Program-made: the position numbers and the translations under genes
Shown here: piece by piece, positions 2,660 through 27,700 of the stretch
How positions within the stretch are numbered: the first letter of the stretch is position 1
How the letters are laid out: the number at the start of each line of letters is the position of its first letter
Source: Acetobacteraceae bacterium
GTDB lineage: Bacteria; Pseudomonadota; Alphaproteobacteria; Acetobacterales; Acetobacteraceae
Direction: 5' to 3'
NCBI GenBank assembly: GCA_025354865.1
Contig: JANXMB010000109.1
Location: 1 to 40,857 of the forward strand
Length of the DNA: 40,857 nt
Notes under the pieces: model-generated
Seen by the model: the letters and a program-made list of their open reading frames with translations, nothing else
What the model was told of the DNA's origin: nothing
Databases searched by the model: none

Positions 2660-3835
2660 ATGCCATTGTCCGGAGTTCGGGTCCTCGACCTCACGCGTGT
2701 CCTGTCGGGACCGTTCTGCACCGCGCTGCTGGGCGACCTCGGCGCCGAGGTGATCAAGGTCGAAGCGCCCGAGGGCGACTCGATCCGCGGCCAAGGCGCC
2801 ATCAAGGACGGGTTGTCCGGCTATTTCGCCCAGTTCAACCGCAACAAACGCTCCATCCGCATCGATCTGCGCACCGAGGCCGGGCGGGAAATCCTGGCGA
2901 AACTGGTCGGATGCTCCGACGTGCTGGTGGAGAATTTCCGCCCCGGCGTGCTGGATCGCCTGGGATTCGGGGCAGAACGGCTGCAAGAACTGCGCCCCAG
3001 CCTGGTCGTCTGCGCCATCAACGGCTTCGGCAGCACCGGCCCCTATCGCGATCGCCCGGCCTTCGACTTCATCGCCCAAGCCCTCAGCGGCTTCATGGCC
3101 GTCAATGGACGCGCCGACGATCCCCCGCTGCGCTCGGGACTGCCGATCGGCGACCTGATCGCCGGGCTGTATGCGGCGCTGTCGGTCACCGCATCGGTGC
3201 TGCGGGCGCGCACCACCGGGCTGGGCCAACGGGCCGAGGTGTCGTTGACCAACGGGCTGGTCAGCATGCTGTCGTATATCGCCACCAATTATTTCGCCGG
3301 CGGCACCGTCCCGCCGCGCAGCGGCAACAACCACCCGATCGCCGCCCCCTACGGGCTGTTCCCGACCCGCGACGGGGAAATCGCGCTGGCGCCGCCGGAC
3401 GATATATTCTTCGGCCGGTTGGTCGATGCGCTGGGCATGCCGGAGCTGAAAACCGATCCGCTCTATGCGACGCAACCCGTGCGAGTGGCCAATCGGGCGC
3501 GGATCGATGCGCTGGTGGGCGGCAAGCTGGCTGCCAATACCACCGCCCACTGGGTCGCCGCCTTGAACGCCGCCGGCGTGCCCTGCGGCCCGGTCAACAG
3601 CGTGGAGCAAGTGTTCGAAGACCCGCAAATCCTGGCGCAGGACATGGTCCTCGACATCCCCCACCCCGGCCACGGCACCGTCCGCATGCTCGGGTTTCCC
3701 ATGAAACTGTCGGAAACACCCTGCCTTGTGCGCCGCCCGGCCCCGGATTTGGGCCAACACACGGACGAGATCCTGGCCGAACTGGGATACACCGAGGCCA
3801 TGCGAAATGCGCTGCACGCGGGGGGAACGGTCTGA
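2660..3835 (+). CDS. CaiB/BaiF class III CoA-transferase
   Basis: 391 residues, normal for the family. It moves CoA between acyl-CoA and free carboxylates through an enzyme-bound anhydride. The N-terminus (GVRVLDLTRVLSGPFCTALLG, then DLGAEVIKVEAP) is the family signature. By comparison with formyl-CoA transferase, the catalytic aspartate should be Asp165 in the segment LPIGDLIAG. The start at 2660 follows a GAGGGA ribosome site nine bases upstream. The stop overlaps the next ATG by one base (TGATG), so it is translationally coupled to the GH51 gene. Substrates cannot be predicted; oxalate, carnitine, succinyl-malate and aromatic acid transferases all share the fold. Confidence 0.9.
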   Translation: MPLSGVRVLDLTRVLSGPFCTALLGDLGAEVIKVEAPEGDSIRGQGAIKDGLSGYFAQFNRNKRSIRIDLRTEAGREILAKLVGCSDVLVENFRPGVLDRLGFGAERLQELRPSLVVCAINGFGSTGPYRDRPAFDFIAQALSGFMAVNGRADDPPLRSGLPIGDLIAGLYAALSVTASVLRARTTGLGQRAEVSLTNGLVSMLSYIATNYFAGGTVPPRSGNNHPIAAPYGLFPTRDGEIALAPPDDIFFGRLVDALGMPELKTDPLYATQPVRVANRARIDALVGGKLAANTTAHWVAALNAAGVPCGPVNSVEQVFEDPQILAQDMVLDIPHPGHGTVRMLGFPMKLSETPCLVRRPAPDLGQHTDEILAELGYTEAMRNALHAGGTV

Positions 3836-5382
3836 TGGTCGCCGCGACGGTTCGGCTGCGGCCCGGCGCCACGATCGGTGCGACCGACAAACGGCTGTTC
3901 GGCGCGTTTGTCGAGCACCTCGGCCGCTGTGTTTACGGTGGTCTCTACGAACCCGGCCACCCCACCGCCGATGCGCGCGGGTTTCGCCGCGATACGATGG
4001 CGCTGATCGCCGAACTCGCGCCCAGCATCGTGCGCTATCCCGGCGGCAACTTCGTCAGCGGTTACAATTGGGAAGACGGAGTCGGACCGCAAGAAGAACG
4101 GCCCAGCCGGCTCGATCTGGCGTGGATGTCGACGGAAACGAACCAATTCGGCACCAATGAGTTCATCGACTGGTGCCGCACCGCGCGGATCGAGCCGATG
4201 CTGGCGGTCAACCTCGGCACGCGCGACGGCGACGCGGCGCGGCGGTTTTTGGAATACTGCAACCATCCCGGCGGCACCGCGCTGTCGGAATTGCGCAAGC
4301 AGCACGGCTGGCCGCTGCCGCACGACGTCAAATTCTGGTGCCTGGGCAACGAGATGGACGGGCCGTGGCAGATGCAGGCACGCACCGCCGACGAATACGG
4401 GCGGATCGCGGTGGAAACCGCGAAGATGATGAAATGGATCGACCCCTCGATCGAACTGGCGGCCTGCGGGTCCTCCGGGCGGAACATGCCGACGTACGGG
4501 CAGTGGGAGGAGACGGTGCTCGAACACACGTTCGACCATGTCGATTACATTTCGCTCCATACCTACATCAACAATTACGCGGGCGATGTGCCGGCGTTTC
4601 TGGCGGCCCCGGACCTGATGGATGGGTTTATCGAGGAAGTGGTGGCGATCGCCGACGCGGTTGCCGCCAAGCGCCGGTCGCCGAAACGGATCATGCTGAG
4701 TTTCGACGAGTGGAACGTGTGGTACCGCACCCGCCGCACGCCGCAGGATCGCAACCGGCCGGGCTGGCCCGTTGCTCCGCCGATCCTGGAGGAAGCCTAT
4801 TCCATGGCCGATGCGCTGGCGTTCGGGGGCATGTGTATTTCGTTGCTGAACCACGCCGATCGGGTGAAGGTCGCGTGTTTGGCGCAGTTGGTGAACGCGA
4901 TCGCGCCGATCATGACCGAAACCGGCGGCGCGGCGTGGCGGCAGACCATTTTCTACCCCTTCGCCCAGTTCAGCCATTTCGGTCGCGGCACGGTGCTGCG
5001 GGCGGAGATCGATTGCGAGCGCTACGATTCCGTCTATTACGACCCGCGCGGCAGCCAGGACCTGCGGTTTCCCATCTCGGCGGAATATTTGAAACTGGCG
5101 GCGGTGCGCGATGAGGCAACCGGCGGCGTTACGATCTTCGCCCTGAACCGGCATCCAACCGAACCGATGCAACTGAAACTCGACCTCGATGGGTTGGGGC
5201 TGCGGTCGGTGCGGGCGGCGCGGCAGCTTTGCGACAGGTCGTTGGATGCGACCAACACGGCGGCGGATCCGGATCGGGTGCGGCCGGGGTTGCTGAGCGG
5301 GGCGACGATTTCCGCCCATGTCGCCCGCGCGACGCTGGCGCCGGCTTCTTGGAATACGATCCGGCTGGGGACTGCGGTTTAG
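3835..5382 (+). CDS. GH51 alpha-L-arabinofuranosidase
   Basis: 515 residues, the usual length for glycoside hydrolase family 51, which releases terminal L-arabinofuranose from arabinan and arabinoxylan oligomers by a retaining mechanism. The barrel signatures are intact: VEHLGRCVYGGLYEP near the start, RYPGGNFVSGYNWEDG, the acid/base Glu173 in CLGNEMDGP, and the nucleophile Glu292 in SFDEWNVWY. A C-terminal beta domain follows. There is no signal peptide, so it is cytoplasmic and would act on imported oligosaccharides. Its ATG overlaps the CoA-transferase stop, an unusual partner. The last 60 bases including the stop are repeated at 7017-7076. Confidence 0.92.
   Translation: MVAATVRLRPGATIGATDKRLFGAFVEHLGRCVYGGLYEPGHPTADARGFRRDTMALIAELAPSIVRYPGGNFVSGYNWEDGVGPQEERPSRLDLAWMSTETNQFGTNEFIDWCRTARIEPMLAVNLGTRDGDAARRFLEYCNHPGGTALSELRKQHGWPLPHDVKFWCLGNEMDGPWQMQARTADEYGRIAVETAKMMKWIDPSIELAACGSSGRNMPTYGQWEETVLEHTFDHVDYISLHTYINNYAGDVPAFLAAPDLMDGFIEEVVAIADAVAAKRRSPKRIMLSFDEWNVWYRTRRTPQDRNRPGWPVAPPILEEAYSMADALAFGGMCISLLNHADRVKVACLAQLVNAIAPIMTETGGAAWRQTIFYPFAQFSHFGRGTVLRAEIDCERYDSVYYDPRGSQDLRFPISAEYLKLAAVRDEATGGVTIFALNRHPTEPMQLKLDLDGLGLRSVRAARQLCDRSLDATNTAADPDRVRPGLLSGATISAHVARATLAPASWNTIRLGTAV
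5323..5382 (+). repeat. 60-bp direct repeat, left copy (3' end of the GH51 gene)
   Basis: The last 20 codons of the GH51 gene, stop included, match 7017-7076 at 59 of 60 positions (A at 5354, C at 7048). Similarity ends at the TAG and does not extend upstream of 5323. This is the arrangement left by a site-specific element that integrates at the 3' end of a gene and restores it, though such elements usually target tRNA genes and no integrase is seen here. Confidence 0.9.
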
Positions 5383-5584
5383 GGAGGGCAACGATCTCGT
5401 CCCTACACCAAAGTCGCCGATCGTGAGCTGCCGCCGGAGGAGGGACGTAAATCGGGGATCTATCGGCCTGCGCAACGTTGTAAAATATGTTGAACAGGGC
5501 GCGAATATTCCGGCGATCGCTGGGCGTCCAAGGGATCGTGCCGGTCTTGTCGACATCCTAAGCGGCCCAGCACCAGCAGTTAGA
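5383..5584. other. Non-coding stretch after the GH51 gene
   Basis: No convincing gene. Open frames cross it on both strands but have no recognisable product and no good ribosome site. It may be a remnant of the inserted element between the 60-bp repeats. Confidence 0.4.
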
Positions 5585-5628
5585 TCGCGCGATTCAGACC
5601 TCCGGTGATTCCACCTCCGGTCATCGCG
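5585..5628. repeat. Palindromic repeat, copy 1
   Basis: A 44-bp unit with outer arms CGCGAT/ATCGCG, a second stem GACC/GGTC offset by a three-base bulge, and an inner stem GGTG/CACC around the loop ATTC. It also contains two direct copies of ACCTCCGGT. It is followed by a 12-base T/G-rich spacer. Confidence 0.85.
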
Positions 5629-5640
5629 CTGTTTGTTTGA

Positions 5641-5684
5641 TCGCGCGATTCAGACCTCCGGTGATTCCACCTCCGGTCATCGCG
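5641..5684. repeat. Palindromic repeat, copy 2
   Basis: Identical to copy 1 over 44 bases. It is preceded by TGTTTGTTTGA and separated from copy 3 by 18 bases that again contain TGTTTGT, so the flank belongs to the element. Confidence 0.85.
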
Positions 5685-5702
5685 ATCCAACCTGTTGTTT
5701 GT

Positions 5703-5746
5703 TCGCGCGATTCAGACCTCCGGTGATTCCACCTCCGGTCATCGCG
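5703..5746. repeat. Palindromic repeat, copy 3
   Basis: Identical core to copies 1 and 2. It ends three bases before the stop of the membrane-protein gene at 5749. The flanks (TTGTTTG before, CTCTA after) are shared with the copy at 32824-32867, extending the similarity to about 57 bp. Confidence 0.85.
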
Positions 5747-5748
5747 CT

Positions 5749-6150
5749 CTAATATTTAGCAGCCTTGAACAGTCCGGCCAAAACGACCGAAATCAATCCG
5801 AACGCACTTGCGGCAGTGCCTCCAACCAATGTTACCACTACGGATGTGTCGAGTTTGAAACCGAACAAGCCGAATCCTTGCAATACTAAAATCACGCCGC
5901 AGAACCCAGAAAACATCCATAAATACCAAAATATTTGTTTACCGAACGTATTTCTAAGTTCGATAGCTTGACGCATTTCGCCAATTTTCAATTCATTTTT
6001 GGCATTTTCCAATGTGTTTTGTTCACGAAGATAGTTGGATTCATCGGCATTGCCTACCGAGCGTATTTTCGACGATTTCTCGATAATGGAAAAATCAGGA
6101 GGCAACCTTGGATTCTCCGGACGCGTTTTCGGTTCCGCTGGCAATGCCAT
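5749..6150 (-). CDS. Small two-helix membrane protein, candidate toxin of a Panacea pair
   Basis: 133 residues. Residues 1-45 are polar and Pro-rich. Residues 45-68 are charged with coiled-coil character (LREQNTLENAKNELKIGEMR). Two hydrophobic segments follow, IFWYLWMFSGFCGVILVLQG and a second one ending SAFGLISVVLAGLF, with a short FKAAKY tail. The ATG at 6150 has a strong GGAGGAG ribosome site eight bases upstream and lies inside the end of the Panacea gene, a 56-bp overlap that couples their translation. I recognise no named family. Panacea-domain antitoxins are known to pair with many unrelated toxins, including small membrane proteins, so a membrane-acting toxin is a fair inference. Base composition is AT-richer than the surroundings. 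Confidence 0.7.
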   Translation of the reverse strand: MALPAEPKTRPENPRLPPDFSIIEKSSKIRSVGNADESNYLREQNTLENAKNELKIGEMRQAIELRNTFGKQIFWYLWMFSGFCGVILVLQGFGLFGFKLDTSVVVTLVGGTAASAFGLISVVLAGLFKAAKY

Positions 6151-6622
6151 CGAAGTACTCCTCCATCATCCTGTCGGTTATGATGGAATTAATGCCCAAA
6201 CTGCGGGCCGTAGCCCAAGGGGCACCGGCGCGATGGGTAAGGGCCGATAAATCGTATGCACTGTAACCCTTGTAGGAATCCCAAACCACGTTTACCAATT
6301 GCTGTTCGACATCGCGTAATTGGGCGCGAACAATATCTCCCCTCATAGAGGGTGCGGCAAACGCCAAATAGTCGTTTTCGCGAATATAGTCTGTTACTGG
6401 GCCGGCGCCATATTTGCGGAGACTATTATATAGGCGCCGATAAACTGGACCATAATCCCGAGCCTCCGGCAACTCTTCTACCAACCGATCCTTTAGGACG
6501 ACTAACCCCCAGCCGTGCGCAAAGAACGGCAATTTTTGGAGTTGCATATTCGTAATCTGGCGCGGCTCTTTCATCGCGCGATCGATAAATTCATTTGCTA
6601 TCGCTTCGACAGGATAAGGCAT
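6095..6622 (-). CDS. Panacea-domain (DUF4065) protein, likely antitoxin
   Basis: 175 residues. The segment from YPVEAIANEFIDRA through ITNMQLQKLPFFAHGWGLV and LPEARDYGPVYRRLYNSLRK has the order of the Panacea/SocA-like domain: an N-terminal helix, the MxLQKLxxxAxG core, then the xxGPVxxxLYxxL segment. Family members act as antitoxins against diverse toxins or, in SocA, as a proteolysis adaptor. The ATG at 6622 follows a GAGGTGG site and overlaps the stop of the upstream small gene by one base (TGATG). The downstream membrane-protein gene starts inside this gene. Codon use is AT-richer than in neighbours, pointing to horizontal transfer. The fold is fairly sure, the antitoxin role is inferred from family and layout. 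Confidence 0.8.
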   Translation of the reverse strand: MPYPVEAIANEFIDRAMKEPRQITNMQLQKLPFFAHGWGLVVLKDRLVEELPEARDYGPVYRRLYNSLRKYGAGPVTDYIRENDYLAFAAPSMRGDIVRAQLRDVEQQLVNVVWDSYKGYSAYDLSALTHRAGAPWATARSLGINSIITDRMMEEYFDGIASGTENASGESKVAS

Positions 6623-6840
6623 CACTTCCACCTCGGCGGCAGACCTGCGCGCGCGGTCCGAAAACGCCGTTCGCACGGCGACAGCGCGGCGCGCATTTGA
6701 GCAACGATGTTACCGCGTCGCAGGCGGCTGGAATGCCCGAGCATGATGGCGCGTTCGTTATCAATCGATAGGTCCATAAGCTGAGCCGCACACCCGATGG
6801 CGTCGGTGGGCCAGATTTGGCCTTCAGGTCCCTTCGCCAT
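6622..6840 (-). CDS. Small basic protein, first gene of the Panacea operon
   Basis: 72 residues beginning MAKGPEGQIWPTDAIGCAAQ and ending in an Arg-rich stretch (SPCERRFRTARAGLPPRW). The start resembles, from memory, a family of small alphaproteobacterial proteins opening MAKGPxGxKRPADVIGxAV and ending in a basic ARxxLxxERR...RW region; here the middle is diverged. The ATG has a good GGAGG site six bases upstream, and the stop overlaps the Panacea ATG by one base, which argues that it is translated. It could be the DNA-binding autoregulator of the operon or a decayed copy; neither is shown. Confidence 0.55.
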   Translation of the reverse strand: MAKGPEGQIWPTDAIGCAAQLMDLSIDNERAIMLGHSSRLRRGNIVAQMRAALSPCERRFRTARAGLPPRWK

Positions 6841-6861
6841 GCTCTGCCTCCAAACCCGATT

Positions 6862-6880
6862 TGTACTACCTAGGTGTACA
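6862..6880 (-). promoter_or_regulatory. Palindromic operator candidate of the Panacea operon
   Basis: TGTAC and GTACA arms flank a perfect ACCTAGGT palindrome with one extra T, giving a near-symmetric 19-bp site 22 bases before the first ATG of the operon. Toxin-antitoxin operons are commonly autoregulated through such palindromes at the promoter. A clear -10/-35 pair could not be assigned. Confidence 0.55.
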
Positions 6881-7016
6881 GTTTGGCGCTAAAAAGCAAT
6901 CCAAAAACTTCTGACGTCGGACGAAGCAATTGCATCCCGCCCGGTTTGCTCCCGGTTTCCAATCGGGTTGTCGCACAGCACGAGCGCGAATTTTTGGTGA
7001 CGCGCAAGCGATCCAG

Positions 7017-7076
7017 GCCCGCGCGACGCTGGCGCCGGCTTCTTGGACTACGATCCGGCTGGGGACTGCGGTTTAG
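7017..7076 (+). repeat. 60-bp direct repeat, right copy
   Basis: Second copy of the last 60 bases of the GH51 gene (see 5323-5382), with one substitution that would change Asn to Thr. The sequence upstream of 7017 is unrelated to the GH51 gene, so this is not the end of a second arabinofuranosidase. Together the copies bound a 1694-bp segment. Confidence 0.9.
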
Positions 7077-7087
7077 CCCTTACGGGA

Positions 7088-7321
7088 TCACTCGGCTTTG
7101 GCAGCCGTCGCCAGGGCCTGGACGTCCAGAGATTCCGCCGTGGCCTCGACATGTACCGCGACGGCTGCCGCAAGGGCCGCGCCGTCGAAGGTGCCGGCGT
7201 CGGTGTTGATGACATAGCCGTAGAGGTTTTCGAGGATCGGCGCGTTGGACGGCCGAGCCTGGGCCGGGGCGGCAATGGTGAGCAGGGCGAGCATCCCTGC
7301 CAGAGCGAGGAGAATATGCAT
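7088..7321 (-). CDS. Small secreted protein, unknown function
   Basis: 77 residues. Residues 1-23 form a signal peptide (HILLALAGMLALLTIAAPAQA). The mature part, about 54 residues, is Ala-rich with the segment APILENLYGYVINTDAGTFDG and has no cysteines or catalytic motif. The ATG at 7321 was chosen because it begins the signal peptide; longer in-frame starts add an unlikely Cys-rich tail. It lies just outside the 60-bp repeat and would have been convergent with the GH51 gene before the insertion. Not recognised. Confidence 0.5.
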   Translation of the reverse strand: MHILLALAGMLALLTIAAPAQARPSNAPILENLYGYVINTDAGTFDGAALAAAVAVHVEATAESLDVQALATAAKAE

Positions 7322-7554
7322 CGACGGCGGACTCCGCTTGGCGCATTGAGGCGGCGCCATTTGACAAGTGAGAGTCTTCGAAGCAATTTGCGTGCCATTC
7401 TTGCAAGATATTGATTTCATGCAACTCACGGGATTGTGAGGCGACATTAAACGACAAGAGTGTAAAATTTTCCGACATAAATAAGAGATTTCTTATAATT
7501 TATACGATACCGCCCCACCCGTCGCGCCACCCCAAACCGCCAACATAATCGCTA

Positions 7555-7587: not shown

Positions 7588-8508
7588 ATGGACCAACTCC
7601 TGGCCAGCCTCCGAGCCGCCGCAGAACCAACGCGCTTGCGCTTGTTGGCGCTGGCAGCGCGTGGCGCGTTCTGCGTCATGGAATTCACCGAAATCCTCGG
7701 CCAATCGCAGCCGCGCCTGTCCCGCCACCTCAAGCTCCTGGTCGAATGCGGCCTGTTGGATCGGGTGCGGGAGGGTACGAATGTATGGTTCGCCCTGCCC
7801 ACCGGCCCGGATGGCGACTTCGCCCGCGACGTGATCGGCCGCCTCCCCACCGACGACCCCACCCTCGAATCCGATCGGCGCCAGGCTGCTCGGGTGCTCG
7901 CCGAACGGGCGCGGGAAGCGTCGGAGAGTTTCCGGCGGACGGGGGCGGATTGGGACGAAATGCGGGCCTTGGGGTTGCCGGCGCACGATGTCGAGCAGGC
8001 GTTGCTGGCGTTGATCCCCGATCCCGGGCAGTTGCTCGATGTCGGCACCGGCACCGGCCGGGTGTTGGAATTATTGGCGCCTCGGGTGCGGCAGGCGTTG
8101 GGCGTGGATGCATCGAAGGCGATGCTGGCCCTCGCGCGGTCGCGTCTATCCGGGGAGGCTTTTGCCCATTGCGCGGTGCGCCAAGCCGACATGTATCGCC
8201 TGCCGCTGGCCAACGCGTCGTTCGACACCGCCGTGCTACAGATGGTGCTGCATTATGCCGAAGACCCGGCCGGCGTCGTGGCGGAAGCGGTGCGCGTGAT
8301 GCGGCCCGGCGGGCGGTTGATCGTCATCGACCTTGCCGCGCACGAGCGCACCGACCTCGCCGGCAAGCTGGCGCATCGCTGGTTCGGCTTTTCCGACGCC
8401 GCCATGCGCGACCTGCTGGCTGCGGCCGGCTTGCGCTCCGCCGAACCCGTGACCGTCCATGGACCGCTCGATGTGCGGTTGTGGCCGGCCGAACGCCCCC
8501 CTGTCTGA
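7588..8508 (+). CDS. ArsR-family regulator fused to a SAM-dependent methyltransferase domain (SahR-like)
   Basis: 306 residues in two parts. Residues 1-75 are an ArsR-type winged helix (LRAAAEPTRLRLLALA, recognition region SQPRLSRHLKLLVECGLL, wing REGTNVWFAL). Residues 110-306 are a class I methyltransferase-like domain: glycine motif DVGTGTGRVLEL from Asp151, the acidic strand end GVDASKAML, and the later RPGGRLIVIDL strand. In SahR-type regulators this domain senses S-adenosylhomocysteine rather than methylating a target, and represses methionine-cycle genes. The palindrome at 7555 and the metH gene 15 bases downstream fit that role. Whether it also has methyltransferase activity cannot be told. 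Confidence 0.85.
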   Translation: MDQLLASLRAAAEPTRLRLLALAARGAFCVMEFTEILGQSQPRLSRHLKLLVECGLLDRVREGTNVWFALPTGPDGDFARDVIGRLPTDDPTLESDRRQAARVLAERAREASESFRRTGADWDEMRALGLPAHDVEQALLALIPDPGQLLDVGTGTGRVLELLAPRVRQALGVDASKAMLALARSRLSGEAFAHCAVRQADMYRLPLANASFDTAVLQMVLHYAEDPAGVVAEAVRVMRPGGRLIVIDLAAHERTDLAGKLAHRWFGFSDAAMRDLLAAAGLRSAEPVTVHGPLDVRLWPAERPPV

Positions 8509-8523
8509 ACCGAGAACCTGTCC

Positions 8524-11500
8524 ATGTCCCGTCCCCATCTGCTCGATGCTCTGCGCGATACCGTTCTGCTGTGCGATGGCGGCATGGGCAGCCGGGTGCA
8601 GGCGCTCACGCTCGATACCGAAACGGACTATTGGGGGCGGGAGAACTGCACCGATGTGCTGTGCCTGTCGCGCCCCGATCTGGTGCGGGAAATCCATCGC
8701 GGCTACTTCGAAGCCGGCGCCGACATGGTGGAAACCAACACCTTCGGCGCGTCCCCGGTCACCCTGGCGGAGTTCGATCTGGCGGACCGAGCGTTCGAGA
8801 TCAACAAGATCGCGGGGGAGTTGGCGCGGGAAGCGGCCGATAGTTTCGCCGACGGGCGGCATCGCTGGGTGGTCGGTAGCATCGGGCCGGGCACGAAACT
8901 GCCGAGCCTGGGGAACATCGCGTACGATCCGTTGGAAGCGGCGTTGACGGAGCAGTGCCGCGGCCTGATCGCCGGCGGGGTCGATGCGATCCTGATCGAA
9001 ACCTGCCAGGACACCTTGCAGATCAAAGCCGCCGTCAACGGCGCCAAAATCGCTCGGCTTGCGGCGGGGGCGAATACCCCGATCTTCGTCCAGGTCACCG
9101 TGGAGACCACCGGCACCCTGCTGGTCGGGCCGGATATTGCCGCCGCTGCGGCCGTGATCGACAGCCTCGATGTGCCGTTGATGGGGCTGAACTGCGCCAC
9201 CGGCCCGCAGGAAATGGCCGAACATGTCGGTTGGCTCGCCGCCAACTGGCCCGGACTGATCTCGGTGCAGCCGAATGCCGGCCTGCCGGAACTGGTGGAC
9301 GGCCAGACGCACTACCCGCTGAATGCCGCCGATCTGGCGAGTTGGCTGGAACGTTTCGTCGCCGAGGACGGGGTCAATCTGATCGGCGGGTGCTGCGGCA
9401 CCTCCATCCCGCATATCCAGGCGCTCGACGCCATGCTGCGCAAGCGGTCGAAGTTCCGCCCTGCCCCGGTGGCGCGCAAGCCGATCTGGATCCCCTCGGT
9501 CGCCAGCCTGTATCAGGCGGTGCCGTTGCGGCAGGAGAACGCGATTTTCGCGATAGGGGAGCGTTGCAATGCCAACGGCTCCAAGAAATGGCGGGAATTG
9601 CAGGAAAAGCACGACTGGGACGGCTGCGTGTCGATGGGCCGCGAACAGGGGGGCGAGGGCTCCCACGCGCTGGACATCTGCACCGCCTTCGTCGGGCGGG
9701 ACGAAAATCTGGAGATGACGGAAGTCGTGCGCCGCTTCACCGCGTCGGTGAACACGCCGCTGGTGATCGATTCCACCGAAACCCCGGTGATCGCGGCGGC
9801 TTTGAAGCTGCATGGCGGCAAGGCCATCGTCAATTCCATCAACTTCGAGGACGGGGAGCAGGCCGCCACCGACCGGCTGAAGCTGGCGAAACAATTCGGT
9901 GCCGCCGTCATCGCTTTGACGATCGACGAGGTCGGCATGGCCAAGACCGCCGAGGACAAGCTGCGCATCGCGTCGCGGCTGATCGGTTTCGCCTGCGACA
10001 CGCACGGGTTGAAGCAATCCGATCTGATGATCGATCCCCTGACCTTCACCATCGCCACCGGCAACGAGGACGATCGCAAACTCGGCCGCTGGACGCTGGA
10101 GGGCATTGCCGCGATCCGGGAAAAATTCCCCGATGTGCAGATCGTCCTCGGGCTGTCGAACATCAGCTTCGGGCTGAACCCGGCGGCGCGCGCGGTGCTG
10201 AATTCGGTGTTCCTCGATCATGCGCAACGGGCCGGGATGACGGCGGCGATCGTGCATGTGTCGAAAATCCGGCCGCTGCATCTGATCGCGCCGGAAGAAG
10301 TGAAAGTCGCCGAAGACCTGATCTTCGATCGCCGAACCGAGGATTACGACCCGCTGCAAACCTTGCTGACGATCTTCGCCGACCGCAAACTCGCGGATGC
10401 CGTGAAGAAAACCCGCGCGGAAACGCCGGAAGGGCGGCTGAAAGATCGCATCATCGATGGCGATCGCAAGGGCCTGTCGGACGATCTGGAGGAGGCGCTG
10501 CTGACGCTGGAACCGCTCGACATCATCAACAACGTGCTGCTCGACGGCATGAAAACGGTGGGCGAGTTGTTCGGGTCGGGCAAGATGCAGCTACCGTTCG
10601 TGCTGCAAAGCGCCGAAACCATGAAGGCCGCCGTTGCCTATCTGGAACCCCGGATGGAACGGGCGGCCGGGCAGGAAAAGGGCACCATCGTGCTGGCGAC
10701 CGTGAAGGGCGACGTGCACGACATCGGCAAGAATCTGGTCGATATCATTCTGACCAACAATGGCTATCGGGTGGTCAATCTCGGCATCAAGGTGCCGTTG
10801 GCGGATATGCTGGCGGCGGCGCAGGAACATCGCGCGCATGCGATCGGCATGTCCGGGCTGCTGGTGAAATCAACCGTGGTCATGCGCGAAAACCTCGAAG
10901 AAATGTCGCGACGCAACCTCGATATCCCCGTCATGCTCGGCGGCGCCGCTTTGACCCGCAACTATGTCGAAGATGCCTGCGTCGAGGCCTATGCCAGCGG
11001 GCGGGTGGCCTATGCTCGCGATGCGTTCGACGGGTTGCATCTGATGGATCGGATCGTCGGCAACGGTTTCGACGACTACCTCGCGGCGATTCAGACAAGG
11101 CGCGTGGGCAAGCCGCGCAACACGACCCGCACGTTGGGGCAGGCCGATGCGCGGGCGTTCCAGCCGGTGGATATCGCCGCCGTGCGCAGCCGCCGCCACC
11201 GCCTGACCCGCGACGTGCCGCCGATGGTGCCGCCGTTCTGGGGTGCGCGCATCCTGGAAGCGGCGCCGAAAGCCATCGTGCCCTTCGTCAACGAGCGCAG
11301 CCTGTATCAATTCCAGTGGGGTTTTCGCAAACAGGGGCGTTCGCTGGACGAATTCCTCGGCTGGGCGAAGCAGGAATTGCGGCCGGTCATGCGCCGCATG
11401 CTGGGCATTTGCGAGGCGGAGGGCATCCTGAAGCCGCAAGCTGCATACGGCTATTGGAAGGTCGCCGGCCAGGGCAACGATCTGATCGTGTTCGACGCGG

Positions 11501-12009
11501 ATGGCGAAACCGAACTGACCCGCTTCGCGCTGCCGCGCCAACCGAAGGAGGACGGGGCCTGCATCGCCGATTTCTTCCGCGACGTGGACGATGCCGAACG
11601 CGATGTCATCGGCTTGCAGGTGGTCACCGTCGGGCAGAAAGCATCCGACACCGCGCGCGTTTGGTTCGAGGAAAATCGGTATCAGGATTACCTCTATTTG
11701 CACGGATTGTCGGTGGAAATGGCCGAGGCGATGGCCGAATACACCCATAAGCGAATCCGAGCGGAACTGGGTTTTGCGGCGGAGGACGATCGCGATATGG
11801 AGAAGATGTTGAGCCAATCCTATCGTGGCAGCCGGTATTCCTTCGGCTACCCCGCCTGCCCTCGGTTGGAGGATCAGGAACCGATCCTGAAACTGCTGGG
11901 GGCCGAACGAATCGGGGTCGATCTGTCGGACGAGTTCCAACTTCATCCTGAGCAATCGACCAGCGCGATCGTGGTGTTGAACCCGCATGCGAAGTATTTT
12001 TCGGTTTAG
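8524..12009 (+). CDS. metH: Cobalamin-dependent methionine synthase
   Basis: 1161 residues, slightly shorter than the E. coli enzyme. It transfers the methyl group of 5-methyltetrahydrofolate to homocysteine through cobalamin. All four modules are in order. The homocysteine domain (residues 1-310) has zinc ligands Cys224 in GLNCATG and Cys290-Cys291 in GGCCGT. The pterin domain starts near 340 (GERCNANGSKKW). The cap and B12 domain carry the cobalt-ligating DxHxxG as Asp730-Val-His732-Asp-Ile-Gly735. The C-terminal activation domain has YRGSRYSFGYPACP near the end. It follows the SahR-like regulator by 15 bases and is presumably cotranscribed. No cobalamin riboswitch is apparent. metF is not nearby. 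Confidence 0.97.
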   Translation: MSRPHLLDALRDTVLLCDGGMGSRVQALTLDTETDYWGRENCTDVLCLSRPDLVREIHRGYFEAGADMVETNTFGASPVTLAEFDLADRAFEINKIAGELAREAADSFADGRHRWVVGSIGPGTKLPSLGNIAYDPLEAALTEQCRGLIAGGVDAILIETCQDTLQIKAAVNGAKIARLAAGANTPIFVQVTVETTGTLLVGPDIAAAAAVIDSLDVPLMGLNCATGPQEMAEHVGWLAANWPGLISVQPNAGLPELVDGQTHYPLNAADLASWLERFVAEDGVNLIGGCCGTSIPHIQALDAMLRKRSKFRPAPVARKPIWIPSVASLYQAVPLRQENAIFAIGERCNANGSKKWRELQEKHDWDGCVSMGREQGGEGSHALDICTAFVGRDENLEMTEVVRRFTASVNTPLVIDSTETPVIAAALKLHGGKAIVNSINFEDGEQAATDRLKLAKQFGAAVIALTIDEVGMAKTAEDKLRIASRLIGFACDTHGLKQSDLMIDPLTFTIATGNEDDRKLGRWTLEGIAAIREKFPDVQIVLGLSNISFGLNPAARAVLNSVFLDHAQRAGMTAAIVHVSKIRPLHLIAPEEVKVAEDLIFDRRTEDYDPLQTLLTIFADRKLADAVKKTRAETPEGRLKDRIIDGDRKGLSDDLEEALLTLEPLDIINNVLLDGMKTVGELFGSGKMQLPFVLQSAETMKAAVAYLEPRMERAAGQEKGTIVLATVKGDVHDIGKNLVDIILTNNGYRVVNLGIKVPLADMLAAAQEHRAHAIGMSGLLVKSTVVMRENLEEMSRRNLDIPVMLGGAALTRNYVEDACVEAYASGRVAYARDAFDGLHLMDRIVGNGFDDYLAAIQTRRVGKPRNTTRTLGQADARAFQPVDIAAVRSRRHRLTRDVPPMVPPFWGARILEAAPKAIVPFVNERSLYQFQWGFRKQGRSLDEFLGWAKQELRPVMRRMLGICEAEGILKPQAAYGYWKVAGQGNDLIVFDADGETELTRFALPRQPKEDGACIADFFRDVDDAERDVIGLQVVTVGQKASDTARVWFEENRYQDYLYLHGLSVEMAEAMAEYTHKRIRAELGFAAEDDRDMEKMLSQSYRGSRYSFGYPACPRLEDQEPILKLLGAERIGVDLSDEFQLHPEQSTSAIVVLNPHAKYFSV

Positions 12010-12037: not shown

Positions 12038-12128
12038 TGCGCGTAGGGTTGGCGTGGCGGCTGCGCGCAAAATCTCTGCGCGTAGGGTTGGCGTGGCGGC
12101 TGCGCGCAAAATCTATATGCGTAGGGTT
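12038..12128. repeat. 39-bp tandem repeat, about 2.3 copies
   Basis: Units start at 12038 and 12077, with a partial third at 12116. The first two are almost identical. Each opens with TGCGCG and carries CGCGCA near its end, so each can fold into a hairpin. The repeat lies between the metH stop and the lipoprotein start. It stays in frame on the minus strand as a 13-residue repeat, which I take as an accident of the 39-base period. Confidence 0.8.
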
Positions 12129-21492: not shown

Positions 21493-22278
21493 ATGCCCAG
21501 CATCGACACCGGCCGCGTTGCTTTATTCTATCAGGACACCGGCGTGGGATCGGGCGATGCGCCGCCGATCCTGCTGCTGCACGAACTCGGCGGCAGCAGC
21601 GAAAGCTGGGCCAAGACGATCCCGCTGCTGGGCGCCCGCCGGCGGGTGGTCGCGGTCGATTTCCGCTGCGCCGGCCGGTCGGAGAAACCGGTGGAACCCT
21701 TCGCGCTGGAAGCGTTGGCGGACGATCTGGCGGCGGTGGCGGGGGCGCTGGGAATCGGCCGTTTCGATGTCGTTGGCGCGGCTTTAGGCTCCCTGGTTGG
21801 GGCCGTGCTGGCGGTGCGCCACCCCCGACTGGTGCGGCGACTGGCGATGTTCGCGGTCGCCCCCGCGATGGCCGGACCGACCCGCATTTACCTCGCGGAA
21901 CGGGCGGCGCTGGTCCGGACCGTCGGCATGCGCGGCGTGGCCGAGGCCAGTTTGAACAACGCCTTCCCCGAGTCCCACGCCGCCATGCGGGCGGAATATC
22001 GCAGCATCTATCTCGCCAACGATCCCAACGCCTATGCCGAATTATCCCTGGCGTTGGCGCGGTTCGAACCGACGCCGGCCGACTGGGGGCGAATCGCCGT
22101 GCCGACCCTGGTGGCGTCCGGCGCCCAGGATTTCATCTGGCCCCCCGCCCTGGGACAGCAGGTCGCCGCCCTGATTCCCGGCGCGCGCTGCGAAATTCTG
22201 GCCGAAGCCGGGCACTTTCCGCATTTGCAGGCGCCCGAGGCCCTGTCGCTTATGGCCATCGGCTTCTTCAACGGCTAA
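21493..22278 (+). CDS. Alpha/beta hydrolase-fold protein lacking the nucleophile serine
   Basis: 261 residues. The fold is clear: ILLLHELGGSSESWAKTIPLL (HGxxG-type oxyanion loop), VVAVDFRCAGRSEKP, the nucleophile elbow, Asp213 in SGAQDFIWPP and His241 in EAGHFPHLQAPE. The elbow reads Gly95-Ala-Ala97-Leu-Gly99 where G-x-S-x-G is expected, so the nucleophile position is Ala; Ser100 lies three residues on and does not replace it in the usual geometry. The protein is therefore either non-hydrolytic (binding, lyase or cofactor-free dioxygenase-like roles are known in the fold) or inactive. The closest general pattern is the 3-oxoadipate enol-lactonase group. No aromatic-catabolism genes adjoin it. 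Confidence 0.87.
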   Translation: MPSIDTGRVALFYQDTGVGSGDAPPILLLHELGGSSESWAKTIPLLGARRRVVAVDFRCAGRSEKPVEPFALEALADDLAAVAGALGIGRFDVVGAALGSLVGAVLAVRHPRLVRRLAMFAVAPAMAGPTRIYLAERAALVRTVGMRGVAEASLNNAFPESHAAMRAEYRSIYLANDPNAYAELSLALARFEPTPADWGRIAVPTLVASGAQDFIWPPALGQQVAALIPGARCEILAEAGHFPHLQAPEALSLMAIGFFNG

Positions 22279-22351
22279 ACCACGCCCACCGCGTCAGCGG
22301 TTAAACCCTGCCGCCGCGCGGTCGGTCCGCGCCCCATGGAGATTGTGTAGA

Positions 22352-23272
22352 ATGCGTCCTTTCTCGCGAGTGGCCCTGCTTCTCACAACCGGTGTGTTTC
22401 TCGCCGCCGCCGACGCCCCGCCTGCCCCGGCGCCAACTGCGCCCGCGCCGGATTTCGTCGCCCGTCGCGGCGATGTGCGCCTGACGGCCGCCGATATCCG
22501 CGAGGCGCTGGGCCGAGCGGACGCGAATTTGCGGGATCAGGTGATCGCGAATCCGCAGGCGCTGTCGGAGTTCGTGAAGGAACGGATGATCCGGCAAATC
22601 CTGCTGACCGAGGCGCACGCTGCCAAATGGGAGCAAAACCCGGAAATCGCGGCAAAAGCGAACGACGTTCGCGATAGCGCCGTCGTGCAACTTTGGCTGG
22701 CATCGAAGGCGCAGGTCGATCCGTCCTACCCGACGCAAGCCGAGCTGGAAGCGGCGTACGAGGCCAATAAGGCGCGCTTCGTGGTGCCGCCGCAATATCA
22801 TGTGCAACAAATCGCCGTCCTGCTGGCGCCGAACGCGGCCAAGGATGCGGTCGATCTGGCGATGAAGAAAGCCAAGGACCTGCGGGCGCTCGTCGCCAAA
22901 CCCGGCGCCGATTTCGCCGATCTGGCCAAGAAAAACTCGCAAGATCCCGCCTCGGCGGGGAAAGGCGGCGACCTCGGCTGGTTGCGCGAAGACCAAATTC
23001 TGAAACCGGTGCGCGATGTGCTGCAAAACATGGCCGACAATGCCATCAGCGACCCCATCCGCGGCGCCGACTCCCTTCATGTCGTCAAGCTGCTCGGCAA
23101 AAAGCCGCAATCGACGCTGCCGCTCGATCAAGTGAAACCGAATTTGATCGCCGCCCTGCGTCAGGCGCGGTCGCAGCAAATGAGCACCGCCTACCTGGAA
23201 GACATGCTGAAAAAAGAGCCGGTGCAGTTGAACGACGCCGGTCTGGCTGCCAAACTCGCGCCACCGAAATAA
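22352..23272 (+). CDS. Parvulin-type peptidyl-prolyl isomerase, secreted
   Basis: 306 residues. Residues 1-22 are a signal peptide (RVALLLTTGVFLAAADA), followed by a Pro/Ala-rich linker. Residues 35-135 form the helical SurA/PrsA-like chaperone region (EFVKERMIRQILLTEAHAAKW). Residues 145-250 are a parvulin domain (YHVQQIAVLL, ADFADLAKKNSQDPASAGKGGDLGW, HVVKLLGKKP). It should assist folding of exported proteins in the periplasm. An ATG at 22352 was chosen over a TTG nine bases upstream. The next two plus-strand genes encode an FHA protein and a very large probably exported protease; a folding role for that protein is conceivable only. Confidence 0.88.
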   Translation: MRPFSRVALLLTTGVFLAAADAPPAPAPTAPAPDFVARRGDVRLTAADIREALGRADANLRDQVIANPQALSEFVKERMIRQILLTEAHAAKWEQNPEIAAKANDVRDSAVVQLWLASKAQVDPSYPTQAELEAAYEANKARFVVPPQYHVQQIAVLLAPNAAKDAVDLAMKKAKDLRALVAKPGADFADLAKKNSQDPASAGKGGDLGWLREDQILKPVRDVLQNMADNAISDPIRGADSLHVVKLLGKKPQSTLPLDQVKPNLIAALRQARSQQMSTAYLEDMLKKEPVQLNDAGLAAKLAPPK

Positions 23273-24778: not shown

Positions 24779-27700
24779 ATGGCGAAAAATTCATGCAATT
24801 GCTGGTTCTGCACCGGACAAAGCGGCGCGTCGCCGCTGTACGCCGACAGCCCAGACGCCGTGGCCGATGCCGAAACCGGTGGCGCATTCGGATCGGGCGA
24901 CGTCGTTTCCGCCATTCTGGCCGCCACTGCGGGCAGCGGCGGATCGTCCACCGGAACGACCGGCCAAACGACGCCGATCGCCGGGGCGTCGGGCACCAGC
25001 GCTTTTCCGTCGTGGGTTTCGACCCTGACCACCGCATCGATCAAGGCGGACATGACCGCTGCCGATGTCGGCGGTTCGGTTTCTTATTCCGGCCTGAAAA
25101 CATTGTTCGCCGATGTTGCCGCATCGCTCGGCACCGGCAAGTTGACCGCCGCGCAGTTCGCCGATCTCAAAACGATCGCCGCGAACCTGAACGTTGGCAT
25201 GTCGACATCGAATTACCTGACCTCGATCGCCAACGCGCTGGTAAACGGCAGTGCGGCCAACGCAACCTGGACCGGCGGCACCGCCACGCCGGTCGCGTTG
25301 GGCAATCTTGCAGTCGGCAGCAGCGCCACCCAGATGAACGAATTGGTCGGGAAATGGTTCTTGGGCACCGATCTGCCCAATGCCAAACTGCTCATGAGCG
25401 GATATTCGGCCTATACTGTTTCGTACTCCGTCGAATCGGTGCCGGTTTTCGCGGCGAGCGGACCCAGCATGAACGATATCAATCAGGGGTATATGGGGGA
25501 CTGTTATTTCCTGTCGAGTTTGGCGGAGGTTGCATACCAGAACGCATCGATAATCAAATCGATGTTCACCGACAACGGCAATGGCACCTACGGCGTGCGG
25601 TTCTTCATCAACGGTTCCGCCCAATACGTTACGGTCAACAACATGATGGCCAACGGCGGCACGTTGTTCGACAAAGGCCCGGATATGTGGGCGGGACTGG
25701 CAGAAAAGGCTTACGCGCAGTTTCAGTCGATCGCGCTGAGCACCGGCAATTCGTCGTACAATTACGGCAATGCCTGGTCTACCATCGCCAATGGCGGCTG
25801 GCCGTTGAATGCGCTGGAGGCGATTACCGGCGCGTCGTCGTTGTCCGAATTCCGCGCCAACGGAACGACCTGGGCCGACTATAACTTCAATGCCGGACTG
25901 GGACAAACCTCCGTTCTGTCCGGCGTATCGACCGCGTCGGTACTATCGACGTTGGTGACCGATCTGTCGCTTGGTTACGATCTGGTTCTGTGTTCGTGGA
26001 CCAACGCCACCGACAGCGCCGGGCGCACGACGCTGGTTTCGAGCCATGCTATGTCGATCTATGGTTACGATACCGCCACGGGCATGCTGGAGGTGCGTAA
26101 CCCCTGGGGCACCGCATCCGGCCAATACTGGGACACAACGTTCGAGGTCGGCCTTTCGACTCTGGCGAAAGCCGGCGATTATATTTCCGTTGCAAATGTG
26201 CCGAGCGGTGCGACGCCGGTGGCTCCGGCGAGTTTGTCGATTGCGGCGACGGCGGCATCGAAGCTCGAAGGTGCGGCAGGTGCGACGACCGCATTGACAT
26301 TCACCGTGACGCGGACGGGCAACACGGCTGTTGTTGCCGCCGCCAATTGGGCAGTATCCAGCAGCAGCGCCAATGGTGCCGATTTCGTCGGCGGGGCGCT
26401 GCCAACAGGCACCGTCAGCTTCGCCGCCGGCCAGACCAGCCAGATTGTTACGGTCAACGTGGCCGGCGACAATGTTGTCGAAGCGGATGAAACCTTTGCG
26501 GTGAACCTGACTGCGGCCAACCCGACGACGACGATCGGAACGGCATCGGCGAGCGGAACGATCTTGAACGACGACGCCCAGCTCTTGATCGTTGCCACCA
26601 GTGCGGTGAAAGCCGAGGGCAATAGCGGCGCCACCCCGTTCACCTTCACCGTGACCCGCATCGGCTACACCGCCGTCGCGCAGTCCGCAAATTGGGCGGT
26701 ATCGAGCACCAGCGCAAACGGCGCAGATTTCATCGGCGGCGTCCTGCCAACCGGCACCGTCAGCTTCGCCGCCGGCCAGACCAGCCAGATCATTACGGTC
26801 AACGTGGCCGGCGATACCATTGTCGAACTGGATGAAAACTTTGCCGTCACGCTAACGAACCCCACAGCCGGCGCGACATTGGGCCAAGCCTCGGCTACCG
26901 GAACGATCCTGAACGACGACGCACCGGCAACCGTATCGATTGTGGCGACAGCGGCGAGCAAATTGGAGGGTGCGGCCGGAACGACGACACCTTTCACCTT
27001 CACCGCGACGCGCACCGGCAATACGGCGATTGCCGCCGCCGCCAATTGGGCGGTGTCGAGCAGCAGCGCCAATGGTGCCGATTTCGTCGGCGGTGTTCTG
27101 CCAACAGGAACCGTCAGTTTCGCCGCCGGGCAGACCAGCCAGATCGTTACGGTCAACGTGGCCGGCGACAATGTTGTCGAAGCGGATGAGACTTTCTCGG
27201 TCAATCTGACATCCGCCAACGCAGCGACGGCCATCGGCACAGCATCCGCCAGCGGAACGATCCTGAACGACGACGCCCAGCTCTCGATCGTTGCCACCAG
27301 CGCGGTGAAAGCCGAGGGCAATAGCGGGGCCACCCCGTTCACCTTCACCGCGACCCGCGTCGGCTACACCGGCATCGCGCCGTCCGCGAACTGGGCGGTA
27401 TCGAGCACCAGCGCGAACGGCGCGGACTTCGTCGGCGGGGTCCTGCCAACCGGCACCGTCAGCTTCGCCGCCGGTCAGACCAGCCAGATCGTTACGGTCA
27501 ACGTGGCCGGCGATACCATTGTCGAACCGGACGAAAGCTTTGCCGTTACGCTGGCGAACCCCACAGCCGGCGCGACGCTGGGCCAAGCCTCGGCGTCCGG
27601 AACGATCCTGAACGACGACGCCCCGGCCAGCGGTCTGCACATCAATCTGATATGGGATGCCAGCGTCGCAGCCGCGCCGGCGGCGTTCAAGACCGCGATC

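What the first reader, a model, noticed from the sequence alone, without database searches (positions are those of the whole stretch)
5323..7076. 1.7-kb insert at the 3' end of the GH51 gene, framed by a 60-bp direct repeat
The last 60 bases of the GH51 gene, stop included, recur at 7017-7076 with one mismatch. Similarity stops exactly at the stop codon on one side and is unrelated on the other. The segment between is AT-richer, gene-poor except for one operon, and holds three palindromic repeats. This is how an element looks that integrates in a gene's 3' end and restores it, yet here the target is a glycosidase gene and no integrase is present.
Basis: partly seen in the sequence, partly recalled or inferred. 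Interest (0 to 1): 0.72.

Follow-up and report, generated by a model that had tools for sequence, protein, structure and literature searches.

The report
Toxin-antitoxin insert behind duplicated gene end
A small acquired toxin-antitoxin cassette sits right behind a sugar-enzyme gene of an uncultured bacterium, with the last 60 bases of that gene on both sides of it; the insertion is real and recent, but it looks like a familiar kind of event, and how the DNA got in is not settled.

Summary
In detail: 5323-5382 (last 19 codons and stop of the GH51 gene) recurs at 7017-7076 with 59 of 60 matches, two copies in the genome. It is an insertion. Congener G028 has GH51, a 127-bp dispersed repeat, then the same downstream region as window 7077 onward; in G008 and G010 the conserved right-hand block begins about 175 and 52 nt after GH51. 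So 7017-7076 is the old GH51 end; 5383-7016 plus one 60-bp copy is new. The cargo is a PanA-PanT toxin-antitoxin pair (Panacea domain, GPV motif, partner with two hydrophobic stretches). The three palindromes are a genome-wide repeat family. GH51 is no recurrent attachment site: 0 of 97 other loci tested, from at most 92 genomes, show the duplicated end. Two other two-copy repeats (124, 177 bp) flank low-GC inserts in the same genome, one at a gene's 5' end, which favours a general capture route; but PanA-PanT lies beside a tyrosine integrase in viral contigs, so an integrase-less relic stays open.

The parts
3835..5382 (+). GH51 alpha-L-arabinofuranosidase gene, intact, including the left 60-bp copy
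   Evidence: Pfam Alpha-L-AF_C 1e-44 on the frame; aligned over its length with 10 homologues, 62-88% identical; start codon
5323..5382 (+). left copy of the 60-bp direct repeat (19 codons and stop of GH51)
5383..7016 (.). inserted segment, 1634 bp, G+C 0.53
   Evidence: absent at this place from the four congeners whose flank can be compared
5580..5752 (.). array of three REP-like palindromes with TTAGA...TCTAA ends; dispersed family; its end overlaps the panT stop codon
   Evidence: 42 matches in own genome; exact 32-base core 19 times in own genome, 0 in 39 other genomes of which 23 are congeners
5749..6150 (-). panT-like gene, 133 aa, two hydrophobic stretches near the C-terminus; putative membrane toxin
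   Evidence: 6 of 6 homologues (found in 249 other genomes) lie directly behind a PanA gene; hydropathy
6095..6676 (-). panA-like antitoxin gene, Panacea domain with GPV motif; the start is more likely the ATG at 6622, which overlaps the stop of the upstream ORF
   Evidence: PF13274 3e-14; NCBIfam SocA 3e-23, below its cut-off; alignment; start
6622..6840 (-). 72-codon ORF upstream of panA, unknown
   Evidence: open frame; no match in Pfam, PADLOC, PHROGs or NCBIfam
7017..7076 (+). right copy of the 60-bp repeat: original, displaced end of GH51
   Evidence: its junction with 7077 onward matches the arrangement in G028
7088..7447 (-). small putative secreted protein gene convergent with GH51; ancestral neighbour
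   Evidence: homologue (40% over 45 aa, 3e-6) directly behind GH51 in G028
7588..8508 (+). ArsR-type HTH plus methyltransferase gene, followed by metH (8524-12009); conserved right flank

Best explanation
A phage-type PanA-PanT toxin-antitoxin cassette was captured at the end of the GH51 gene in a recent event that left the gene's last 60 bases on both sides. Shown: the insertion, its borders, the old site in relatives, and the PanAT-like cargo. Inferred: a single crossover (Campbell-type) between the chromosome and a circular or tandem DNA that carried the cassette and a copy of this gene end, or an equivalent capture with duplication; general recombination rather than a dedicated integrase made the join. 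GH51 stays whole because the left copy restores its end. Recombination between the copies could delete the cassette, and the toxin would select against cells that lose it, so the cassette would hold itself in place.
For: Four congeners whose right flank can be compared lack the segment: G028 keeps GH51 next to the same downstream region (56.8 bits against at most 26.8 in 60 block shuffles), G008 and G010 have about 175 and 52 nt there, G015 has a different HTH_3/Gp49 pair without a repeat of 25 bp or more around it. Copies differ at 1 of 60 sites while these congeners differ by about 20% in GH51. In 824 kb of the same genome two other inserts (G+C 0.56 and 0.57) are flanked by local repeats that have no third full copy in the genome, 124 bp at a gene's 5' end and 177 bp, so long flanking duplications occur here away from gene 3' ends. 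No duplicated GH51 end in 17 family loci (four had under 2 kb of downstream sequence, three of them under 1 kb) or in 80 loci of genome contigs (two had under 1 kb); weak matches in L023, L167 and L174 do not include the stop. Precedent: in E. coli, 56 of 60 clones of one assay were gene-end duplications ascribed to a single crossover of a circular molecule with residual homology; 14 sequenced, 109-950 bp (PMC3240628, passages seen).
Against: The repeat ends exactly at the stop codon, which a restoring integrase element explains better than chance. PanA-PanT lies beside a tyrosine integrase near an end of viral contigs. Why a donor molecule would carry 60 bp of this gene end is unexplained. 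The two other inserts were not shown to be insertions by relatives (one search gave no test for one; the other was not tried). The published duplications are longer than 60 bp. Toxicity and retention were not tested.
Confidence: 0.47

Rival explanations
1. Relic of a site-specific integrative element (prophage-like). Its tyrosine integrase used the 3' end of GH51 as target, the element restored the gene end (attL 5323-5382, attR 7017-7076), and later deletion removed the integrase and the rest, leaving the toxin-antitoxin pair.
For: The repeat is the gene end up to and including the stop; empty site in relatives; the cargo has phage relatives (PHROG 1281 for PanA; 26171 and 13343 weakly for PanT; PanA in 85 phage records, and 45 viral-contig loci; PanT in 4). 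In viral contigs L276, L285 and L314 the order is PanA, PanT-like, then a convergent tyrosine recombinase (Pfam PF00589 at 4e-20, 7e-6 (just under its cut-off) and 2e-11), 3 of the 27 PanA loci looked at out of 45. The PanT partner is supported by tblastn in L276 and by profile comparison in L285, but only by eye in L314. 14 of 68 thaumarchaeal elements sit in 3' ends of protein genes (PMC6563490, passages).
Against: No integrase or phage remnant recognised in the insert. No duplicated end at GH51 in 97 other loci, and none of those loci matches the four integrases used as queries (limited sensitivity). No GH51-end pattern in viral contigs. The contig end lies on the PanA side in L276 and L285 but on the integrase side in L314, so these do not define one attachment layout; that they are integrated proviruses was not tested. 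Needs a large deletion in the short time allowed by 59/60 identity.
Confidence: 0.37
2. Tandem duplication of the GH51 end followed by separate insertion of the cassette between the copies, or a GH51 paralogue deleted down to its last 60 bp.
For: Gives the same final layout.
Against: Sequence after the two copies is unrelated, the right copy is at the ancestral junction, one GH51 match at E<=1e-60 in the genome; needs two or more events.
Confidence: 0.08
3. Assembly artefact: two strain variants or a free circular molecule sharing 60 bp were joined in a draft genome of 190 contigs.
For: Draft genome, 3.56% contamination.
Against: The repeat has a mismatch; the insert carries this species' own REP-like family; both flanks match congeners in order.
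Confidence: 0.04

Closest known systems
PanA-PanT (Panacea/SocA-like) toxin-antitoxin systems, membrane-toxin group (Kurata et al. 2022, PMC8832971, passages seen)
   Same: Panacea domain, GPV motif, neighbouring small toxin gene with predicted hydrophobic segments near the C-terminus
   Different: the PanT family here has no significant Pfam match and was not compared with the paper's toxin clusters; activity untested
Integrative elements in the 3' end of protein genes (tyrosine recombinase; examples in PMC6563490, passages seen)
   Same: direct repeats, target gene restored, empty site in relatives
   Different: no recombinase, 1.7 kb, no second occupied site found
Single-crossover or homology-facilitated capture of foreign DNA (PMC3240628, PMC5361080, passages seen)
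   Same: foreign segment next to a duplicated or displaced gene end
   Different: repeat of 60 bp is shorter than the 109-950 bp measured in PMC3240628; no loss of recipient DNA seen
HTH_3/Gp49 (HigBA-like, label recalled) pair in G015
   Same: toxin-antitoxin-like pair on the minus strand in the same GH51/ArsR-methyltransferase interval
   Different: unrelated genes, no flanking repeat found

Membership tests
PanAT toxin-antitoxin | Panacea domain (PF13274) | tested here: met
   54.3 bits against cut-off 25.7
PanAT toxin-antitoxin | GPV motif | tested here: met
   residues 76-78, invariant in 7 of 7 aligned
PanAT toxin-antitoxin | conserved adjacent toxin gene | tested here: met
   6 of 6 PanT homologues next to PanA; 4 of 4 viral PanT hits on contigs that also gave PanA hits
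PanAT toxin-antitoxin | toxicity neutralised by PanA | not testable with these tools
   needs expression tests
SocA equivalog (type VI) | NCBIfam NF047745 cut-off | tested here: not met
   82.4 bits against 190
Site-specific integrative element at a gene 3' end | direct repeats including the restored gene end | tested here: met
Site-specific integrative element at a gene 3' end | empty site in relatives | tested here: met
   in G028 a 127-bp repeat element lies at the junction
Site-specific integrative element at a gene 3' end | recombinase gene in the element | tested here: not met
Site-specific integrative element at a gene 3' end | same site occupied by related elements elsewhere | tested here: not met
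   duplicated end in 0 of 17 and 0 of 80 loci, five genomes being in both sets
Transposon or IS | transposase, terminal inverted repeats, short target duplication | tested here: not met
   no inverted repeat of 16 nt or more joins the two borders, 60-bp duplication, no transposase match among the insert proteins and fragments tested

The most novel reading that the evidence does not exclude
This genome gains small low-GC cargo inserts by a route that duplicates 60-180 bp of host sequence at a gene end on both sides, without a dedicated recombinase, and toxin-antitoxin cargo persists because it prevents loss through the repeats.
Probability: 0.15. Interest if true: 0.55.

Novelty: new member of a known kind. 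Interest (0 to 1): 0.34.

Why it matters
It is a clean, recent case of a toxin-antitoxin pair arriving at a defined spot with both borders readable, and an unrelated pair lies in the same interval of a congener. If the flanking duplications prove to be a general route in this genus, they would explain how small cargo genes enter without mobile-element machinery, and the direct repeats make retention by the toxin directly testable.

Tried and rejected
REP-like array as a cause: rejected, the palindromes are genome-wide and similar arrays lie elsewhere. Left edge 5384-5575 as a phage gene remnant: PHROG hit 0.0056, no phage match, matches at E<=0.1 in 41 of 299 family genomes, the best (2.5e-4) on the strand opposite to a longer open frame that looks like a binding protein; taken as noise. 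GH51 end in viral contigs: none with two degenerate patterns. PanA in genome contigs with the single protein: 28 candidates, none confirmed. PanT in plasmids: none. PADLOC: none. Insert edges 5383-5582 and 6677-7016 in 33 other genomes: none. Direct repeats of 25 bp or more in ten other Panacea loci (six with PanT): three weak pairs of 27-49 bp in L068 and L075, not followed up. REP ends supplying stop codons: 13 of 33 REP ends close an open frame of 100 codons or more against 30 of 92 other TTAGA sites, no clear excess (9 of 66 in the other two registers). Empty site for the C190 insert: 19 congener gltX loci (name recalled) lack the neighbouring gene within the fetched 1.5 kb, so no test. 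No structure was predicted.
Full report
What is there. The last 60 bases of the GH51 gene, 19 codons and the stop, stand at 5323-5382 and again at 7017-7076 with one mismatch. The genome (G000, 4.76 Mb, 190 contigs) has no further copy at E<=0.001. The bases just outside the block differ on both sides, so the block is exactly 60 bp. Congener G015 has a contig of the same length as CAIRCM010000006.1, an uncultured Acetobacteraceae genome of the Umea bins, which also came up as a GH51 locus; that the two records are one, and that the host therefore belongs to that family, is my inference.

It is an insertion. In the first search six congeners gave a GH51 match of 170 bases or more. In four of them the right flank can be compared, and none has the segment. 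In G028 the GH51 stop (10480-10482 of L024) is followed by a 127-bp dispersed repeat (10477-10603, second copy in the same contig) and then by a homologue of the small gene at 7088-7447, whose stop is at 10605-10607, and by its far side (blastn 56.8 bits against at most 26.8 in 60 block shuffles); the G028 contig ends before the next gene. In G008 and G010 the conserved block that begins at window 7552 starts about 175 and 52 nt after the GH51 stop. In G015 the interval of about 0.8 kb holds an HTH_3 protein and a Gp49-type protein on the minus strand, a different toxin-antitoxin-like pair. In the other two, G003 and G025, the similarity to the window ends within GH51 and the right-hand genes are not there, so they give no empty site. 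In the window the right copy ends 11 bp before the stop of the small convergent gene; in G028, without its repeat element, the two stops would also nearly touch. The right copy is therefore the old GH51 end, and the left copy now completes the gene. One change in 60 sites separates them, while GH51 differs by about 20% between the window and these four, so the event is young. At the variable site three of the four share the base of the left copy and G010 that of the right, too little to date or polarise it.

What was inserted. Two overlapping genes on the minus strand: a Panacea-domain protein (PF13274, 54.3 bits, cut-off 25.7) with the GPV motif, and a 133-aa protein with two hydrophobic stretches near its C-terminus. 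Homologues of the second protein were found in 6 of 249 other genomes of the order, each directly behind a Panacea gene. Kurata et al. (PMC8832971, passages seen) describe such pairs as PanA-PanT, with membrane-depolarising toxins among them, and name the GPV motif as critical. Relatives of PanA occur in 85 phage and 25 plasmid records, all below 60% identity. In viral contigs PanA was found at 45 loci and PanT at 4, all four on contigs that also gave a PanA hit; an E. coli phage record is annotated PanA and PanT. In three viral contigs the order is PanA, PanT-like, then a convergent tyrosine recombinase: L276 and L285, where PanA is at the contig end, and L314, where the recombinase is (the L285 match is just under Pfam's cut-off, and the PanT of L314 was judged by eye). 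I looked at 27 of the 45 loci for this; L282 and L284 show another integrase-like ORF (by eye) about 3 kb away. Upstream of panA is a 72-codon ORF, 6622-6840, whose stop overlaps the likely panA start and which has no family match.

What is not part of it. The three palindromes form one array (5580-5752) of a dispersed family: 42 matches in this genome, 19 exact copies of a 32-base core, none in 39 other genomes searched, 23 of them congeners. They entered the insert after its arrival, or the insert came from the same species.

How it got in. Two readings remain. First, general capture: a single crossover of a circular DNA with a short gene-end homology, or an equivalent event, gives cargo between direct repeats. 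In E. coli 56 of 60 clones of one assay were such gene-end duplications, 14 sequenced at 109-950 bp (PMC3240628, passages). In 824 kb of this genome, the window included, I found three local repeat pairs of low copy number (30-400 bp, 84% identity or more, spacing 0.2-12 kb), after dropping 21 pairs of families with more than three copies: the GH51 one, a 124-bp pair around a 619-bp insert at the 5' end of an inositol-monophosphatase-like gene (name recalled from the sequence, not tested), and a 177-bp pair around 2.1 kb. The latter two have no third full copy in the genome (one further 36-base match), and the three inserts have G+C of 0.53-0.57 and no similarity to each other. A 340-kb sample of congener G012 gave one pair, of 50 bp. 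For the C190 insert relatives gave no test of an empty site; for C158 I made none. Second, an integrase relic: the block ends at the stop codon, the gene is restored, and the cargo can travel beside integrases. I favour capture slightly.

Function. If PanT is toxic, cells that lose the cassette through the 60-bp repeats would suffer from leftover toxin, so the cassette would hold itself in place. This is inference; nothing here tests it.

Novelty. Toxin-antitoxin pairs in acquired segments and gene-end duplications around inserts are both known. A search for toxin-antitoxin with flanking direct repeats, integrase and genomic islet (three of four terms) gave 29 papers, of which I saw 12 in the listing and read none; I make no claim that the case is absent from print. 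I rate it a new member of a known kind.

Noticed in passing
L022 (G015), between the GH51 stop and the ArsR-methyltransferase gene: A different toxin-antitoxin-like pair (HTH_3 plus Gp49) lies in the same interval as the PanAT insert, also on the minus strand.
   Followed up: partly
L200 1525-1648 and 2268-2389 (G000 C190:21525-21648 and 22268-22389): A 124-bp two-copy repeat at a gene's 5' end flanks a 619-bp low-GC insert with a small secreted-protein-like ORF.
   Followed up: partly
L231 6879-7055 and 9169-9345 (G000 C158): A 177-bp two-copy repeat flanks a 2.1-kb low-GC insert with a 368-aa ORF (metallo-hydrolase-like by eye, no Pfam hit at 0.01) and a transposase-like fragment (by eye).
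   Followed up: partly
L024 (G028):10477-10603: A 127-bp dispersed repeat with TTAGACCATGATC / GATCATGGTCTAA inverted sequences starts at the GH51 stop codon.
   Followed up: partly
window 5748-5752: The end of the REP-like array overlaps the panT stop codon; a count over 33 REP ends showed no clear excess over other TTAGA sites.
   Followed up: yes
window 26222-27623: Four 300-bp repeats, 65-83% identical to the first, spaced 345-354 bp, perhaps a repeat protein.
   Followed up: no
window 12038-12115: Two 39-bp tandem copies just after metH.
   Followed up: no
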